Shown here: in pieces, positions 8,301 through 51,992 of the stretch
Layout of the letters: each line of letters opens with the position of its first letter
How positions within the stretch are numbered: position 1 is the stretch's first letter
DNA from: Acidobacteriota bacterium
GTDB lineage: Bacteria > Acidobacteriota > Vicinamibacteria > Vicinamibacterales > UBA2999
Assembly (NCBI GenBank): GCA_030650395.1
Contig: JAUSDY010000143.1
Location: forward strand, 1 to 64,000
DNA: 64,000 bases
Direction: 5' to 3'
The notes under the pieces: generated by a model
The model's database searches: none
Told to the model about the DNA's origin: nothing
Seen by the model: the letters and a program-made list of their open reading frames with translations, nothing else
Position numbers and translations under genes: made by a program

Positions 8301-9176
8301 GTGACCGTCGCCTTATGCCTCATCCTCCCGTTGCTCGCGCAGCGGCCGATCGACCTGCGCGAGAAGGGGTTCCGCTCCTCCACCGAACTGGTGACCACCG
8401 CGGTCACGGTGCGCGACGCCGAGGGGCGCCTGGTCACCACGCTTCAGCAATCGGACTTCATCGTGGAAGAAGACGGTGTCCCGCAACCGATCACGCAGTT
8501 CACGAAAGAACGCGTGCCGGTGAGCCTGGCGCTCGCGCTCGACGTCAGCGACAGCATGCGCGGTCAGCGCATGGTCGATGCGCAGGCCGCCCTCGCGAAT
8601 TTCCTCGATCAGCTGCTCGCCCCCGAGGACGAGGCATCGCTGCTTGGCTTCAATCACGAGACGCAATTGCTCGGCGAGTGGACGATGTTGCGTCTCGGCC
8701 TGCGGACCAAGCTGGAGGCCATCCGCCCCTCTGGCGGCACCGCGCTGTTCGACGCGATCGCGAAGTCGCTGCCGCTCTTCGAGAATCGCATGCACCCCCG
8801 CGCGGCGTTGCTGCTGGTGTCGGATGGCGCGGACACCGCGAGCGACCTGACGCCGACGATCGTCAAGCAAACACTGGTGCGGAGCGACGTGTTTCTGTAT
8901 GCGATCGGCATCGACTCCACCGACGCGCGCGCGTCCACGCGCATCAACCCGTTCACGCTGAACGACCTCACCGCCCAGGGCGGCGGGTATACCGAGATCA
9001 TCAAGAGCACCGCGGAGCTCCCCGCCGCCACTGCGCGGATTGCCGAGGAGCTCAACCACCAATACATGATCGGTTACACGCCAACCACCAGCGGCGACGG
9101 CAAATATCACAGCATCCGGGTGAGGGTGAAAAACGACGCCTTCAAAGTGCGCGCACGACGTGGTGTCGTCCGATAG
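8301..9176 (+). CDS. Secreted VWA-domain protein, acidobacterial type
   Basis: A protein of 291 residues from GTG 8301, chosen because the first codons form a hydrophobic export signal (VTVALCLILPLLAQ). A beta-rich domain follows (VTTAVTVRDAEGRLVTTLQQSDFIVEEDG), then a von Willebrand A domain with an intact metal-ion site: DVSDSM (DxSxS), the threonine in GGTALFDAI and the Asp in LLLVSDGADT. The C-terminus HQYMIGYTPT...VRVKNDAFKVRARRG is shared with the VWA proteins at 17485 and 18630, marking the acidobacterial VWFA-related family. The role is unknown; such proteins are probably periplasmic or surface-bound adhesion or assembly factors. Confidence 0.85.
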   Translation: MTVALCLILPLLAQRPIDLREKGFRSSTELVTTAVTVRDAEGRLVTTLQQSDFIVEEDGVPQPITQFTKERVPVSLALALDVSDSMRGQRMVDAQAALANFLDQLLAPEDEASLLGFNHETQLLGEWTMLRLGLRTKLEAIRPSGGTALFDAIAKSLPLFENRMHPRAALLLVSDGADTASDLTPTIVKQTLVRSDVFLYAIGIDSTDARASTRINPFTLNDLTAQGGGYTEIIKSTAELPAATARIAEELNHQYMIGYTPTTSGDGKYHSIRVRVKNDAFKVRARRGVVR

Positions 9177-9177
9177 T

Positions 9178-9238
9178 TCCTCACAGGGGTTCCTTACGAG
9201 GGTTCCTTACGAGGGTTCTCGACGGGGGTTCTTCGCCG
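9178..9238 (+). repeat. Tandem array of a 12-bp GGTTCC unit, left half
   Basis: Four or five degenerate units of GGTTCCTTACGA stand in the GGTTCC orientation. They run from just after the VWA stop into the 3' end of the four-helix-bundle gene, whose last residues are repeat-encoded. The matching array at 9655-9737 is in the opposite orientation. Confidence 0.85.
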
Positions 9239-9626
9239 GTTTCTTCGGCTTGAACCGCGGATCTGATTGAGCTTTCCGCTGGTAGGCTTGCAGCCTGTTC
9301 ACGCAAATCCGGCATCGGGCGAGGAGGCGAATCAGCGGACCTACGTTCTCGGCCGGGAAGTAGTTACTCACTACCCCATCACGCAGGGAATTCTCAGTTT
9401 CGTCGAGCGAGGCGCGGGCGATCCCCAGGAAATGAGCGAACTCGCCCGGGTTGTAACGGCCAAATCCTTCTGCGATATTCCGCGGCGGCGAGCGCACTGA
9501 ATCTGACAACTGATCGCAGAATTTGAAATCTCGAACAACGGGTCCCGACTTGAGCAGCGGCAGGACTTTATCTCTGAGCTCGGCGCAGAGCTTCCACGCA
9601 TCGAGTTCCCGATAGCTGTAGACCAT
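9207..9626 (-). CDS. Four-helix-bundle protein (23S rRNA IVS-encoded type)
   Basis: A protein of 139 residues from ATG 9626 (ATG 9644 also possible). It starts MVYSYRELDAWKLCAELRDKV and continues CDQLSDSVRSPPRNIAEGFGRYNPGEFAHFLGIARASLDETENSL. This is the signature of the S23/IVP four-helix-bundle family, found in 23S rRNA intervening sequences and as free-standing genes; the Avd protein of retroelements has the same fold. It probably forms an oligomer that binds nucleic acid. No rRNA gene or reverse transcriptase is nearby. The gene lies exactly between two inverted 12-bp repeat arrays, and its basic tail (KPKKPAKNPRREPS) reads into the left one. Confidence 0.85.
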   Translation of the reverse strand: MVYSYRELDAWKLCAELRDKVLPLLKSGPVVRDFKFCDQLSDSVRSPPRNIAEGFGRYNPGEFAHFLGIARASLDETENSLRDGVVSNYFPAENVGPLIRLLARCRICVNRLQAYQRKAQSDPRFKPKKPAKNPRREPS

Positions 9627-9654
9627 GCCAGCCACTGTCAGCATGGCTCATGCC

Positions 9655-9737
9655 ATTTGGAACCTCCGTCCGGAACCTCCGTCCGGAACCTCCGTTCGGA
9701 ACCATCGTCGGGAACCCTCGTTCGGAACCCTCGTGAG
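9655..9737 (-). repeat. Tandem array of the 12-bp unit, right half (inverted)
   Basis: About seven units appear as GGAACCTCCGTC, GGAACCATCGTC and GGAACCCTCGTT, the reverse complement of the left array. The array ends about 27 nt before the M20 peptidase start. An ATG at 9657 inside the array is in frame with the peptidase but is not its natural start. Confidence 0.85.
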
Positions 9738-9764: not shown

Positions 9765-11171
9765 ATGCGTTTCACATTTCTAGCGGTGGCATTGGTATCG
9801 ACTTCTCTACTGGCGCAGGGCCCCGCGCAGCCTGACTGGGCGAAGTTGGAAGAGGAATCGATGAGGCACTTCCAGGCCATCATCAAGATGGACAGCACCG
9901 ATCCTCCCGGTGGCGAGAAGCCGGTGGTCGATTACCTCAAGCAGGTGCTCGAGGCCGAGGGCATTCCGGTGCAGATCTTCGCGCTCGAGGCGCACCGGCC
10001 CAACCTGGTGGCGCGCTTCAAGGGCAACGGCAAGAAGCGCCCGCTGCTGTTGATGGGCCACACCGACACCGTCAACGTCGACCCGAAGAAATGGACGCAT
10101 CCGCCGTTTGGCGCCGTGCGCGACGGCGGCTGGGTCTACGGCCGCGGCACGGTCGACGACAAAGACAACGTGATCGCCAGCCTGATGACCATGCTGATGC
10201 TCAAGCGGCTGAACGTGCCGCTCGACCGCGACGTCATCTTCCTGGCCGAAGCCGGCGAAGAAGGCACCTCGCGCATCGGCATCCAGTTCATGGCCAACCA
10301 GCACTTCGACGCGATCGACGCGGAGTTCTGCTACGCCGAAGGCGGCAGCGTGGCACGCACCGGCGGCGCGGTGAAGTACGCGCGAGTCCAGACTGTCGAA
10401 AAAATTCCGCGGGCCATCACCGTGACCGCGCGCGGCATTGCCGGACACGGCTCGGTGCCGCTCGAGACCAACGCGCTCGCCCACCTCGGCGAAGCGGTCG
10501 GCGCGATCGCCGCCTGGACGCCGCCGCAACGCATCAACGAAACGACCGCGGCCTATTTCAAGCGCCTGGCGTCAGTGTCGACGCCTGAAGAAGCCGCGCG
10601 CTATCGCGACGTGCTCAGTCCCGACCCGAAGATCTCGGGTCCCGCCGACGCGTACTTGCGCAAGAACGAACCGAGCCACTGGTCGATGCTGCGCACGTCG
10701 TTGTCGCCGACGATGATCGGGGGCGGCTATCGGACCAACGTCATCCCGTCCGAAGGCACCGCCAACATCGACACGCGGCTCGCACCGGATGAGGATCCGA
10801 TGAAGTTCCTCGAGCTGGTCAAGCAAGTCGTGAACGATCCGCAGGTCGAGGTCAGTTACGGCGCGCGCGACACGCGCCCGCCGACGCCGACCGCCAGGCT
10901 CGACTCCGATGCCTTCAGGGCGATCGAGGCCAACATCACCAAGCACTACAAGGCGATCACGCTGCCGACCATGAGCACCGGCGCCACCGACATGGCCTTC
11001 CTGCGCCAGAAGGGCGTGCAGTGCTACGGCATCGGCCCCGCGGCCGACACCGAAGACGGCCCGAAGGGCTTCGGCGCGCACAGCGACCAGGAGCGCATTC
11101 TCGAAGGCGAGCTGTTCCGCTTCATCCGCTTCAACTGGGACGCGGTACTCGATCTCGCTCGAACACGATGA
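9765..11171 (+). CDS. Secreted M20 family metallopeptidase
   Basis: Zinc-dependent exopeptidase or deacylase of 468 residues from ATG 9765, the first start after the repeat array, giving a clean signal peptide (MRFTFLAVALVSTSLLAQG). The M20 motifs are present: LLMGHTDTVNVD (H99, D101), GRGTVDDKDN with the bridging Asp, EAGEEGTS with the Glu pair near 165, EGGS, GHGSVPLETNAL in the dimerisation domain, TGATDMAF and the last metal ligand in GFGAHSDQE. The order matches carboxypeptidase/dipeptidase members of M20. It probably degrades peptides in the periplasm together with the S9 enzymes nearby. A TACCCT box 7 nt upstream is a weak promoter candidate. Confidence 0.9.
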   Translation: MRFTFLAVALVSTSLLAQGPAQPDWAKLEEESMRHFQAIIKMDSTDPPGGEKPVVDYLKQVLEAEGIPVQIFALEAHRPNLVARFKGNGKKRPLLLMGHTDTVNVDPKKWTHPPFGAVRDGGWVYGRGTVDDKDNVIASLMTMLMLKRLNVPLDRDVIFLAEAGEEGTSRIGIQFMANQHFDAIDAEFCYAEGGSVARTGGAVKYARVQTVEKIPRAITVTARGIAGHGSVPLETNALAHLGEAVGAIAAWTPPQRINETTAAYFKRLASVSTPEEAARYRDVLSPDPKISGPADAYLRKNEPSHWSMLRTSLSPTMIGGGYRTNVIPSEGTANIDTRLAPDEDPMKFLELVKQVVNDPQVEVSYGARDTRPPTPTARLDSDAFRAIEANITKHYKAITLPTMSTGATDMAFLRQKGVQCYGIGPAADTEDGPKGFGAHSDQERILEGELFRFIRFNWDAVLDLARTR

Positions 11172-11175
11172 AATA

Positions 11176-11238
11176 GCCGAAGGTTCCAGACAGGGGTTCC
11201 GCACGAAGGTGCCACACGAGGGTTCCGGACGAGGGTTC
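11176..11238 (+). repeat. 12-bp GGTTCC array supplying the S9A start codon
   Basis: Five degenerate units (GGTTCCAGACAG, GGTTCCGCACGA, GGTGCCACACGA, GGTTCCGGACGA, GGTTCTATCC) stand in one orientation. The GTG start of the downstream prolyl oligopeptidase is inside the third unit. Confidence 0.8.
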
Positions 11239-17370: not shown

Positions 17371-17484
17371 GCTAGTTGAAAGTTGAAAGTTGACAGTTCA
17401 AAGTTGCAGTTGAGAGTTCGAGTTGCGAGTGAACCCTGAAACTTGGAACTGAAACTTTCAACTTTGAACTTTCAACTTTGAACT
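17371..17484. repeat. Inverted array of a 7-bp GTTGAAA/TTTCAAC unit
   Basis: The left half reads GTTGAAAGTTGAAAGTTGACA and so on, and the right half reads AACTTTCAACTTTGAACTTTC. The array fills the whole gap between the unknown secreted protein and the VWA gene and ends at its ATG. Related arrays are at 21534 and 25298. Confidence 0.85.
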
Positions 17485-21533: not shown

Positions 21534-21602
21534 TGTTAGTTGAAAGTTGAAAGTTGGCAGTTGAAAGTTTCAGTTGTCAGTTCAAGTTTCAAGTTTCAAG
21601 TT
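21534..21602. repeat. Inverted 7-bp array next to a four-helix-bundle gene
   Basis: GTTGAAAGTTGAAAGTTGGCA on the left is followed by TCAAGTTTCAAGTTTCAAGTT on the right. It separates the VWA gene from the four-helix-bundle gene and overlaps the 3' end of the latter. Confidence 0.85.
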
Positions 21603-22024
21603 CGTTGTCCTCTGGCTCTTGTGCGGTGGGGTTTCTTTGATTCGCGCTCGAGGCGATGGGCGACCTTGATCGCGATTGTGGCGAAGATGGCGCATAGCTC
21701 ACCGGCTTCGCGTTCCAGGTCTGCGACTTTCTGGAAGCCATTCAGCTGGCCGAGCCGAAGTTTTGCGAGACACTGTCTTGATTCCTTCGCTTCTCGAAGA
21801 GTCAGTTCGATCTTGTAGAGGAAATCCGCGTCACTCGAAGCGTCGTCGGCTTCGACGAGATTGTTCGACGTCGAATCCGCGGCCCGCACCAGTTGTCCCC
21901 AGACGGTGGCACTCGGGACGTTGGTGAACCGCTCGGGACAGGCCAGGTTTATGCCGGTAGAAAAGCGCAGGGTGCGCTCCTGGAGCGCCAGAGTACGCTT
22001 GCGAGCTTCAGATGGTGGCTTCAT
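21596..22024 (-). CDS. Second four-helix-bundle (23S rRNA IVS-type) protein
   Basis: A protein of 142 residues from ATG 22024. It contains LRFSTGINLACPERFTNVPSATVWGQLVRAADSTSNNLVEADDA and FLYKIELTLREAKESRQCLAKL, the conserved core of the IVP/S23 family, with a basic C-terminus (RLERESKKPHRTRARGQR). It differs clearly from the protein at 9207, so this is not a recent duplication. Like that gene it touches a short-repeat array. A nucleic-acid-binding oligomer is the likely form; its biological role is not known. Confidence 0.85.
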   Translation of the reverse strand: MKPPSEARKRTLALQERTLRFSTGINLACPERFTNVPSATVWGQLVRAADSTSNNLVEADDASSDADFLYKIELTLREAKESRQCLAKLRLGQLNGFQKVADLEREAGELCAIFATIAIKVAHRLERESKKPHRTRARGQRT

Positions 22025-49861: not shown

Positions 49862-51847
49862 TCAACAGTTGGGGTCAGACCCTGGCACCCCAAAAACATC
49901 CCGATAGAACGCCAACTCCTCCTCGAGTGCCCTGATGATGTTCTCGGCCTTGCGGAAGCCGTGCTGCTCGCCCTCGAAGGTGACGTAGGCCACCTTCACC
50001 CCCTTCTTCTTGAGCGCCTCCGCCATCATCGCGGACTGGTTGGGCGGCACCACCTTGTCCTCGAGCCCCTGGAAGAGGATCAACGGGCATGACAGCCGAT
50101 CGGTGAAGTGGATCGGCGAGCGATTGACGTAGAGGTCGCGCGCGGCGGGGTACGGACCGATCAGCGAATCGAGATACCGCGACTCGAACTTGTGAGTGTC
50201 GTGCGCCAGCACCTCGATGTCGCTGATGCCGTAATAGCTCGCGCCCGCCTTGAAGGTCGAGTGGAACGTCAGCGCCGCCAGCGTGGTGTAACCGCCGGCG
50301 CTGCCGCCGCGGATCATCAGCCGCGCCGCATCCGCCTTCCCTTGCGCCACCATCGCCTCGGCGCCGCCCACCGCGTCTTCGACATCGACGATGCCCCATT
50401 GGCCTTTCAGGCGATCGCGATAGGGCCGGCCGTAACCGGTGCTGCCGCTGTAGTTGACGTCGAGCACGGCGAAGCCGCGGCTGGTCCAGAACTGCACCTC
50501 GGGATCGAGCACATCGGAGGTCGCGCCCGTCGGCCCGCCGTGCGTCAGCACCAGCAACGGCGGCCTTTCGCCATCGGGCGCCGTGACGCCGGGATTGGTC
50601 GGCGGGTAATAGAACGCATGCACGTCCCTCGGATCACCTGCGGCCTTCGGCACCACGCGGAAGGTGACGGCCTCGGGCACGGAGATCCACTCCGGCTGAA
50701 TCCGTTCGCCCGATGACGATCGGAGGATCACGGCGTTCATCGAGTCGAGCGGCACCCGCACAATCGCCGTGGCTTCGGTCGCCGAACCGCCGACGAAATA
50801 GATCGCGCGCGGATTGGCGCGGATCGACTCGGTCGGCTGAAGCGGCACCGGGGCCCCCAGCGCGGCAGCCGCGCTGGGGTGGAGGTCGATTGGCTCGAAC
50901 TTCCCGGTGCCGGTATCAACCAGCGCCATTCGCCAGCGCCCGTCTTCCACGTACGTGGCCACCAGGCGGTCGCGCGAGATGAACGCGTAGGTGACCATGC
51001 CGAACGTCCACTGCGGCTTGCCGAACTCCGCGGCCATGGCGTGGACCGGCTCGGCCGGCCCGCGCCCTGCCCTGAATGAAGTCGAAGGGCTGCGATACAG
51101 GTTCCACCAGCCGCTGCGATCCGAGACGAAGTACAGCGTGCCGTCCGGCGACCATTCCGGTTGAAAGATCGATTCGTCCGGGCCACCCGCGATCTTCTCG
51201 CGGGCCCCGAGACTGCCGTCGGCCTTCACCGCCGCGATCCACAACTCGGTGCCGTCCCACGGCATGTTCGGGTGGTTCCACTGAATCCAGGCGAGCGACT
51301 GGCCGTTGGGGCTGACGATCGGATCGGAATAGAAATCCGCGCCAGACACAAGCACCGGACCAGCCCCACCCGCCCCACCCGCCTGAATCGCCACGATGGT
51401 GTTGGGCGGTGCGGCATCGCCGCGGGTGTGATCCTCGCGCACGGCGATCAATCGCTTGTGCACCGCCTCGACGCGGTAGTCCGCGTAGAAGTAGCCCTTC
51501 GGCGTCAGCGCTTCGGGCGCCTGGCCCGGCGTCTGCCGATAGAGGCGCTGATCCTCGAAATTGGAGAAGTAGATCGTGCCGCGATCGACGGTGTAAGCGG
51601 CGCCGCCGTACTCGTGCACGCGCGAGCGGACGTTGAACCCAGCGGGCGTCACGTCGCTCATCACGCCGTCGGGCGTCATCCTCACGATCACATAGCGTCC
51701 GCCCTCGCTCGCCCTCCCTTCCACCCAATACACGTCGTTCCCATCGAGATGGATCTGATCGAGCCGCAGCGCCCCCGCCGTCACGCGGGCCGCAGTGAGC
51801 GGCGAGGCCCACGAACCGTACGGACGTTCCTCACGAAGGTTCTTCAC
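49862..51847 (-). CDS. S9C-type prolyl oligopeptidase (acylaminoacyl/dipeptidyl peptidase)
   Basis: A protein of 661 residues: an N-terminal propeller (SPLTAARVTAGALRLDQIHLDGNDVYWVEGRASEGGRYVIVR..., residues to about 400) and a C-terminal alpha/beta-hydrolase domain with GGSAGG (nucleophile Ser), Asp in GLEDKVVPP and His in GEQHGF. It has no signal peptide. The only upstream start is GTG 51847 in the 12-bp repeat array, so MKNLREERPYGS is partly repeat-encoded. The last residues (PGSDPNC) read through a GGGGTCAGACCC repeat. Residues SPSTSFRAGRGPAEP come from another dispersed repeat (51066-51092). It removes N-terminal dipeptides or acylated residues from peptides. Confidence 0.9.
   Translation of the reverse strand: MKNLREERPYGSWASPLTAARVTAGALRLDQIHLDGNDVYWVEGRASEGGRYVIVRMTPDGVMSDVTPAGFNVRSRVHEYGGAAYTVDRGTIYFSNFEDQRLYRQTPGQAPEALTPKGYFYADYRVEAVHKRLIAVREDHTRGDAAPPNTIVAIQAGGAGGAGPVLVSGADFYSDPIVSPNGQSLAWIQWNHPNMPWDGTELWIAAVKADGSLGAREKIAGGPDESIFQPEWSPDGTLYFVSDRSGWWNLYRSPSTSFRAGRGPAEPVHAMAAEFGKPQWTFGMVTYAFISRDRLVATYVEDGRWRMALVDTGTGKFEPIDLHPSAAAALGAPVPLQPTESIRANPRAIYFVGGSATEATAIVRVPLDSMNAVILRSSSGERIQPEWISVPEAVTFRVVPKAAGDPRDVHAFYYPPTNPGVTAPDGERPPLLVLTHGGPTGATSDVLDPEVQFWTSRGFAVLDVNYSGSTGYGRPYRDRLKGQWGIVDVEDAVGGAEAMVAQGKADAARLMIRGGSAGGYTTLAALTFHSTFKAGASYYGISDIEVLAHDTHKFESRYLDSLIGPYPAARDLYVNRSPIHFTDRLSCPLILFQGLEDKVVPPNQSAMMAEALKKKGVKVAYVTFEGEQHGFRKAENIIRALEEELAFYRDVFGVPGSDPNC
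49871..49882. repeat. Single GGGGTCAGACCC repeat at the S9C stop
   Basis: GGGGTCAGACCC is in frame as the penultimate codons of the S9C gene (reverse strand). It belongs with the clusters at 42957 and 56322. Confidence 0.6.
51066..51092. repeat. Dispersed CCCTTCGAC-type repeat inside the S9C gene
   Basis: CCTGCCCTGAATGAAGTCGAAGGGC is in frame and encodes SPSTSFRAGRG, at a propeller loop. Confidence 0.7.
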
Positions 51848-51992
51848 GAAGGTTCCTCACGATGGTTCCTCACGAACGTTCCTCACGATGGTTCAACACT
51901 ACCCCGAGTGAACCATCGTCGAGAACCCTCGTGGAGAACCTTCGTGGGGAACCGCCGTGGGGAACCCTCGTGCGGAACCCGCGTGAGGAACA
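51828..51992. repeat. Inverted array of the 12-bp GGTTCC unit with a 13-nt centre
   Basis: Left: six units such as GGTTCCTCACGA, ending TGGTTCA (51889-51895). Centre: 13 nt (ACACTACCCCGAG, 51896-51908). Right: TGAACCA then GGAACC units such as CGTGGGGAACC. It lies in the divergent promoter region of the S9C and amidase genes and supplies the S9C GTG start. It is the empty counterpart of the array pair at 9178/9655. Confidence 0.85.

What the first reader, a model, noticed from the sequence alone, without database searches (positions are those of the whole stretch)
9178..9737. A four-helix-bundle gene sits precisely at the centre of an inverted 12-bp array
Left array (9178-9238) is in GGTTCC orientation, right array (9655-9737) in GGAACC orientation, and the only thing between them is an IVS-type four-helix-bundle gene. 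At 51828-51992 the same unit forms the same inverted pair with just a 13-nt centre. This looks like a filled and an empty site. The second four-helix-bundle gene (21596) also touches a repeat array. The protein family is linked to intervening sequences and retroelements (Avd), so it may be cargo of, or act on, these arrays.
Basis: partly seen in the sequence, partly recalled or inferred. Interest (0 to 1): 0.75.

Follow-up and report, generated by a model that had tools for sequence, protein, structure and literature searches.

The report
Four-helix-bundle genes mobile inside repeat arrays
A small helical-bundle gene found in many bacterial groups usually sits between two mirror-image runs of a short repeat, and the package of repeats plus gene has moved into new DNA sites as one unit, which offers a testable explanation of how short repeat arrays spread through bacterial genomes.

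Summary
The pattern is general. In this genome 14 of 15 PF05635 genes score >=30 for inverted flanks, against 26 of 337 ORFs, at least 2 of which are such genes. Genes or close groups have their own unit. Of 80 named loci from many phyla, 47 of 75 testable pass against 8 of 134 neighbour genes (score >=20). Array-gene-array is a mobile unit: two copies here match over 572 bp and stop at the array edges; at 8 cyanobacterial plasmid sites the element is present in one plasmid and absent from relatives, the clearest with a 5-bp target duplication. In 35 Xanthomonas genomes the abundant unit follows the gene type present, with exceptions. So this looks like an undescribed mobile-element family: the gene is 'master' of its arrays, and gene-less inverted pairs (51826-51991) are non-autonomous relatives. 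'Filled and empty array' is not right: the empty plasmid sites have no array. Reverse transcriptase is not generally required. What cuts and joins is unknown.

The parts
9176..9238 (+). Left array, 13-bp unit in GGTTCCTCACGAG orientation; overlaps the 3' end of the fhb gene
9207..9626 (-). Four-helix-bundle gene (PF05635/TIGR02436), 139 aa; C-terminal codons and stop lie in the left array
   Evidence: model mean pLDDT 89.5, best PDB match 2GSC
9641..9655 (-). -24/-12 (sigma54-like) motif TGGCATGAGCCATGC; start codon 14 nt after it, so a leaderless mRNA is predicted
   Evidence: motif sense 45 of 121, antisense 2 of 121 fhb loci of the order; the sigma54 consensus is recalled
9659..9737 (+). 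Right array, 13-bp unit in GGAACCCTCGTGA orientation
51826..51991 (+). Gene-less inverted pair of the same 13-bp unit, 15 nt between the arms
11178..11238 (+). Single 13-bp-type array
21596..22024 (-). Second four-helix-bundle gene (TIGR02436 E=1.7e-10; PF05635 29.5 bits, below its cut-off of 33.8)
21538..21598 (+). Heptamer-type (AGTTGAA) array at the 3' side of the second gene only; no inverted partner found
17374..17484 (+). Gene-less inverted pair of AGTTGAA/AACTTTC arrays, 34 nt apart

Best explanation
The array-gene-array block is a small mobile element (about 0.4-0.6 kb). It inserts as one unit; in 7 of 8 plasmid cases just after the stop codon of a neighbouring gene. Its only gene encodes an S23/Avd-fold four-helix-bundle protein. 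I propose that this protein, probably as a pentamer, binds the tandem unit (as DNA hairpin or transcript) and, with a host or unknown enzyme, drives copying and re-insertion of what is bounded by inverted arrays of its own unit. Gene-less inverted pairs are the non-autonomous members. Shown: the specific association, dispersal as a unit, precise insertion, correlation of unit with gene type. Inferred: that the protein is the cause, that it recognises the unit, and the whole chemistry.
For: Inverted-array flanks: 14 of 15 genes here, 56 of 79 in this genome and relatives (83 of the 123 hits had been fetched, 4 of 83 dropped for short flanks). With gene-end flanks: order loci 72 of 115 at >=24 (79 at >=20) against 1 of 40 (8 of 40) neighbour ORFs; named genomes 47 of 75 at >=20 (25 at >=24) against 8 of 134 (2 of 134); direct sense 10 of 115 (>=24) and 14 of 75 (>=20). 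Paralogues L004/L005 match at 82% over 572 bp, from the outer edge of one array to the outer edge of the other, and not beyond. Eight plasmid sites with the element in one record and not in co-linear relatives (read); at one, a 5-bp duplication GTAAT in 3 of 3 comparisons, relatives 97-98% identical to the query. Gene-less pairs at two of these sites in other plasmids, by reading (L387, L395). Xanthomonas: GGGACC hits 46-86 in 4 of 4 carriers of the car-locus gene, >=40 in 1 of 31 others; GGGATTC share higher with type B than type A genes (p=2.4e-4); GGGAATC lower where type A/B is absent or broken (p=1.1e-4). Window unit: only L004 and L005 of 121 fhb loci carry the 13-mer and 13-mer arrays occur in 2 of 21 genomes. 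Own-genome fhb units match 35 of 127 other arrays, against 8-14 with equal numbers of units from other genomes (8 draws).
Against: No transposition was observed and no catalytic residues are known. A clear target duplication was found at only 1 of 8 sites (3 bp at one, in one of two comparisons, and 2 bp at one; none at five). For paralogues L010/L011 and L314/L315 the shared block (574 and 591 bp) includes the left side but stops short of the right array. Arrays persist without a matching gene: G060 has 46 GGGACC hits and no fhb; G001 has 33 13-mer hits and no 13-mer-flanked fhb among its 13. G061 has 90 GGGATTC hits but only the car-type gene. Other genes can lie between inverted arrays: 4 of 7 distinct long pairs in 462 kb (uppS, a lyase-like gene, a Skp-like gene, the peptidase at 9765-11168), three of them with the opposite polarity, and a kinase-like ORF in L310. 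Some fhb genes lack inverted arrays (43 of 115 order loci and 28 of 75 named loci stay below the thresholds quoted), and L374 has direct arrays. Xanthomonas genomes are related and the p-values are not phylogeny-corrected.
Confidence: 0.6

Rival explanations
1. The arrays are mobile (or grow) by an unrelated host process and the four-helix-bundle gene is a passenger that happens to be carried.
For: Array hits far outnumber gene-bearing copies (13-mer pattern 198 hits for two genes; GGGAATC 69-280 hits in type-A Xanthomonas with one such gene); other genes are sometimes enclosed; genomes with arrays but no matching gene exist (G060, G001).
Against: One gene family is enclosed far more often per gene than others, across phyla, and array unit abundance follows the gene type present.
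Confidence: 0.24
2. Arrays are landing pads: the gene inserts into the centre of existing inverted arrays.
For: Gene-bearing and gene-less pairs of one unit coexist in the window (9176-9737 and 51826-51991).
Against: Sites read as empty in plasmids carry no array; at accB-accC the gene-less pairs in G056, G060, G061 have the GGGACC unit while gene-bearing ones have GGGAATC or GGGATTC; homology of L004 and L005 includes the arrays.
Confidence: 0.05
3. Avd-like retro-mobility: the protein works with a reverse transcriptase in trans that copies the hairpin transcript.
For: Fold similarity to Avd in DGR complexes (8ub7, 4dwl; TM to the query about 0.63-0.68, E 0.08-0.34).
Against: RVT_1 found in 16 of 44 genomes tested; absent in 20 of 32 PF05635-positive Xanthomonas genomes and in G014 with 10 hits.
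Confidence: 0.05
4. A 23S-IVS-like or regulatory RNA hairpin: arrays are selected as stems around a gene, grown by local slippage, without transposition.
For: An IVS element carries a gene of this family and is cut out of the rRNA by RNase III (PMC4990558, abstract).
Against: No Rfam family at gathering score in 18 loci, the 15 own ones among them; insertions at plasmid sites and a dispersed copy with unrelated surroundings.
Confidence: 0.06

Closest known systems
REP/REPIN elements with RAYT (TnpA-REP) genes
   Same: A gene flanked by inverted copies of a short repeat, many dispersed gene-less inverted pairs, repeat type linked to gene type (papers seen as listing and start of abstract; the rest recalled).
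   Different: The protein is a four-helix bundle, not a Y1 HuH transposase; the repeats are tandem arrays of 7-18 bp units, not single palindromes.
23S rRNA intervening sequences with S23 (IVP) ORF
   Same: Same protein family (PF05635, TIGR02436); the ORF lies in an excised element (PMC4990558, abstract).
   Different: No rRNA near the loci tested; stems are tandem arrays; many dispersed copies.
Diversity-generating retroelement Avd
   Same: Same fold (TM about 0.67 to 4dwl and 8ub7).
   Different: Most genomes tested have no detectable RVT_1; template and variable repeats were not looked for.
Short tandem arrays: cyanobacterial STRR heptamers (recalled) and Xanthomonas GGGAATC repeats (PMC4692102, passages)
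   Same: Xanthomonas type-A fhb genes are flanked by the GGGAATC unit itself; that paper reports 70 and 75 convergent inverted pairs in two genomes; plasmid fhb genes of cyanobacteria have heptamer arrays.
   Different: 'Four helix' and 'S23' do not occur in that paper's main text; it proposes no gene for the spread in the passages seen.
MITEs of insertion sequences
   Same: Small gene-less relatives beside a gene-bearing element; a target duplication in one clear case.
   Different: No transposase of a known family in the gene-bearing element; ends are arrays rather than a fixed terminal repeat.

Membership tests
Four-helix bundle S23/IVP family (PF05635, TIGR02436) | Profile match over curated cut-off and S23 fold | tested here: met
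   TIGR02436 61.5 and 41.1 bits, cut-off 24; PF05635 66.4 bits for 9207-9626 but 29.5, below cut-off, for 21596; fold match 2GSC
23S rRNA IVS element | Insertion in a 23S rRNA gene | tested here: not met
   No Rfam match at gathering threshold in 18 loci
REPIN/RAYT system | Y1 HuH transposase gene | tested here: not met
   The gene between the arrays is a TIGR02436 four-helix bundle; the genome was not searched for RAYT
REPIN/RAYT system | Repeat type in genome follows the associated gene type | tested here: met
   Xanthomonas counts, not phylogeny-corrected, with exceptions G060, G061
DGR (Avd) | Reverse transcriptase in the genome | tested here: not met
   RVT_1 in 16 of 44 genomes tested
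DGR (Avd) | Template and variable repeats | not tested
   not searched
DDE-type insertion sequence/MITE | Constant-length target site duplication | tested here: inconclusive
   5 bp at one site, 3 and 2 bp at two, none at five
DDE-type insertion sequence/MITE | Catalytic transposase in the element | tested here: not met
   The ORF between the arrays is a four-helix bundle

The most novel reading that the evidence does not exclude
A class of mobile element spread over many bacterial phyla whose only protein is a pentameric four-helix bundle and whose ends are inverted tandem arrays; this protein recognises its own unit and is the missing agent that seeds short tandem repeat arrays (cyanobacterial STRRs, Xanthomonas GGGAATC and the like), by a transposition chemistry not yet known.
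Probability: 0.45. Interest if true: 0.95.

Novelty: categorically new. Interest (0 to 1): 0.86.

Why it matters
Short tandem arrays have been catalogued in cyanobacteria (recalled), Xanthomonas (PMC4692102) and others without an agent for their spread; one survey infers an unknown satellite-transposition mechanism in a few prokaryotes (PMC6749651, passages). This finding names a candidate gene, a defined element with ends, filled and empty sites, and a specificity rule (unit follows gene) that can be tested in a laboratory strain. It would also give a function to a large family annotated only as 'four helix bundle protein' or, misleadingly, 'S23 ribosomal protein', including one of solved structure deposited as a conserved hypothetical protein (2GSC, XCC0516).

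Tried and rejected
Conserved GCAG-NNN-CTGC motif upstream of the genes: seen by eye, not clearly enriched (6 of 83 against 33 of 1000). Start-codon hairpin CCATGC..GCATGG: 3 of 83 against 4 of 1000; it resolved into the -24/-12 motif, which is nearly confined to this order (45 of 121 against 1 of 80 named loci), so it is lineage-specific regulation, not part of the general element. Empty site at Xanthomonas carA-carB: in the 10 of 16 non-carriers where carB was reached the junction holds various other sequence, so no clean empty site; in 6 carB was not reached. accB-accC was not read in G065 (my pattern failed). Phage carriage: no tblastn match of one query in 50,697 phage records. First flank control for named loci contained rows with negative starts; replaced. 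An AGC-type motif just inside gene-less Xanthomonas pairs: 26 of 38 ends against 1 of 56 control windows in the set where it was noticed, 8 of 14 against 4 of 22 in 7 further pairs; suggestive, not relied on. Reverse transcriptase partner: rejected as a general requirement. By-eye target duplications TTCTA (site 3) and TTAG (site 7) were not confirmed by alignment and are not counted. Literature: searches (open PMC papers only, no preprints) found nothing linking this gene family to tandem arrays; that is not proof of absence.

Full report
1. The thing itself. The window is contig C159 of a 5.41-Mb genome. The 9.2-9.7 kb region holds a 13-bp tandem array (GGTTCC sense) at 9176-9238, a four-helix-bundle (fhb) gene on the minus strand at 9207-9626, a -24/-12 promoter-like motif at 9641-9655, and the same array in the opposite sense at 9659-9737. 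The gene's last codons run into the left array. The protein matches TIGR02436; its AlphaFold model (mean pLDDT 89.5) is closest to 2GSC, XCC0516 of Xanthomonas campestris, then 2RLD, then Avd chains of diversity-generating retroelements. 2GSC and 2RLD each have five chains; a pentamer is inferred from that.

2. It is general in this genome. There are 15 PF05635 hits (11 over the curated cut-off). TRF finds arrays on both sides of 12 of 15 and on one side of L009, L011 and L014. Units differ between genes or close groups: 18-mers (L001, L002), 10-mer (L003), 13-mer (L004, L005), 8-mer types (L006, L010, L011), 9-mers (L007, L015), 7-mers (L008, L012, L013); the match of left unit to reversed right unit was judged by eye and by score. 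A flank test (local alignment of the left 450 nt with the reverse complement of the right 450 nt) gave score >=30 for 14 of 15 here and 56 of 79 over this genome and relatives, against 26 of 337 ORFs (at least two are fhb genes themselves), 58 of 840 random positions and 28 of 778 mismatched flank pairs; medians 35 inverted, 18 direct (83 of the 123 hits had been fetched, 4 dropped for short flanks).

3. It is general among bacteria. Many show heptamer-type arrays within about 10-100 nt on one or both sides. With 250-nt flanks from the gene ends, 47 of 75 testable loci reach 20 against 8 of 134 neighbouring ORFs of the same loci (at 24: 25 of 75 against 2 of 134; Mann-Whitney 1e-20); the direct sense gives 14 of 75 at 20. 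In the window's order, 72 of 115 reach 24 against 1 of 40 neighbours (at 20: 79 against 8); direct 10 of 115 at 24 (5 of 80 and 6 of 121 loci dropped for short flanks). So a sizeable minority of genes lacks recognisable inverted arrays.

4. Arrays plus gene move together. L004 and L005, two places in this genome, match at 82% over 572 bp; the match runs from about 135 nt before to 139 nt after the domain hit, which for the window copy is 9176 to about 9746, the outer edges of the two arrays, and goes no further. L010/L011 (574 bp) and, in G001, L314/L315 (591 bp) share a block that includes the upstream side but ends 35-38 nt after the domain hit, short of the right array. In PLSDB, tblastn found fhb genes on 28 plasmids, mostly Nostocales. 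The six read first have arrays on both sides, five inverted (L370 and L371 are near-identical) and one (L374) direct. Eight plasmid sites have the element in one record and lack it in relatives co-linear on both sides: Trichormus/Scytonema against Nostoc linckia and Microchaete; Calothrix brevissima against Tolypothrix and Aulosira; two neighbouring sites in Nostoc ATCC 53789/C052 plasmids; a traM site in C052 against C057; MS1 against T. variabilis; N. edaphicum nrdB-nrdA against Calothrix NIES-4105; Aulosira plasmid 2 against Microchaete and C. brevissima (sequences read). The empty sites as read have no array. In seven of the eight the element begins just after the stop codon of the gene upstream; at nrdB-nrdA it is antisense to both neighbours. 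At the first site the alignment gives a 5-bp overlap, GTAAT, in 3 of 3 comparisons (relatives 97-98% identical to the query); at two others 3 bp (in one of two comparisons) and 2 bp; at the remaining five none, several of these with diverged flanks. At the first site Brasilonema pBOCT2 has a gene-less inverted pair with a related unit and Nostoc C052 pC052_E what looks like a decayed copy; at the traM site pNsp_c has a gene-less GGGAAC-type pair (by reading).

5. Unit follows gene. In Xanthomonas (35 genomes) PF05635 hits occur in 32. At accB-accC there are two protein types, 61-73% identical to each other and 85-100% within type (15 and 11 sequences): type A flanked by GGGAATC, type B by GGGATTC; a third type at carA-carB is flanked by GGGACC. 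Typing was by reading flank and protein start; the type-A gene of G044 has an in-frame stop, and those of G054 and G055 are broken type-B copies. Tandem GGGACC hits: 46-86 in the 4 car carriers; 20 of 31 other genomes have none and one (G060) has 46. GGGATTC: median 55 in 13 type-B genomes against 21 in 16 type-A genomes (p=0.002); GGGAATC: median 109 in A, 76 in B (p=0.007), 0-41 in the six with neither or a broken copy (p=1.1e-4). Exceptions: G061 (car type only) has 90 GGGATTC; some type-A genomes (G039, G059, G063) have 67-85; G060 has arrays but no gene. These tests ignore phylogeny. The GGGAATC array is the repeat described in PMC4692102 (passages), which counted 70 and 75 convergent pairs in two genomes. 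At accB-accC, G056, G060 and G061 carry gene-less GGGACC pairs where others carry the gene with GGGAATC or GGGATTC. For the window's unit, 13-mer arrays are found in this genome (198 pattern hits) and G001 (33) and not in 19 other relatives; of 121 fhb loci only L004 and L005 carry it, so G001 is an exception or its master lies in the missing part. In 462 kb of this genome, own fhb units match 35 of 127 arrays not next to an fhb gene; equal numbers of units from other genomes match 8-14 in 8 draws.

6. Gene-less pairs and other genes. In the same 462 kb there are 15 close inverted pairs (under 250 nt apart) and 1 direct pair. Of 7 distinct longer inverted pairs, 3 enclose fhb genes; the others enclose uppS, a lyase-like gene, a Skp-like gene (L090) and the peptidase at 9765-11168. 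Three of those four have the polarity opposite to that around fhb genes, as when arms of separate arrays face each other; the Skp-like case has the same polarity. In G001 a 13-mer pair encloses a kinase-like ORF (L310). The seven close 13-mer pairs in the capped list all have the GGTTCC arm first, the polarity seen around the gene.

7. Mechanism. Shown: association, unit dispersal, insertion, unit-gene correlation. Inferred: the bundle, probably pentameric, binds its unit as hairpin DNA or RNA and promotes copying or insertion with a host enzyme. A reverse transcriptase is not generally needed: RVT_1 is in 16 of 44 genomes tested and absent from 20 of 32 PF05635-positive Xanthomonas genomes and from G014. 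An rRNA intervening sequence is not what is seen here (no Rfam match in 18 loci). In this order the genes are probably under sigma54-type control with leaderless mRNAs (GGCA[CT]N6TGC sense 45 of 121, antisense 2 of 121; 1 of 80 in named loci; the consensus is recalled).

8. Compared with the known. It works most like REPIN/RAYT (papers seen in listing with start of abstract only), but the protein is unrelated and the repeats are tandem arrays; it does not meet the RAYT, DGR and IVS membership tests made here. The literature searches found no description; coverage is open PMC only. PMC6749651 (passages) infers an unknown satellite-transposition mechanism in a few prokaryotes, which is the kind of question this could answer.

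Noticed in passing
L372 2477-2845; L374 2483-2842; L392 1477-1833: Plasmid fhb genes sit inside CRISPR operons: between cas6 and cas4 of type I-D (Anabaena 90, Pseudanabaena) and between cas10 and cmr3 of type III-B (Picosynechococcus).
   Followed up: partly
L388 1477-1845: An fhb element lies between the two ribonucleotide reductase subunit genes of Nostoc edaphicum pNe_5, in the opposite sense to them.
   Followed up: partly
window 9641-9655 and upstream of 45 of 121 fhb loci in the order: Sigma54-like promoter placed so that the start codon is about the first transcribed base (leaderless), nearly only in this order of bacteria.
   Followed up: partly
L310 1158-1820: A 13-mer inverted pair in relative G001 encloses a protein-kinase-like ORF (by eye) instead of an fhb gene.
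   Followed up: no
L090 16846-17636: An 18-mer inverted pair encloses a Skp/OmpH-like gene (by eye).
   Followed up: no
L246, L244 (Xanthomonas carA-carB): The array begins inside the carA 3' end, so the array seems to code the last residues of CarA; the carA-carB junction holds other sequence in other species.
   Followed up: partly
L078 4016-4073, 9682-9718; L077 13785-13820: Array families TTAACTC and TGAGGGCT/GGGGCTT in this genome have no fhb gene with that unit among the 15 found.
   Followed up: no
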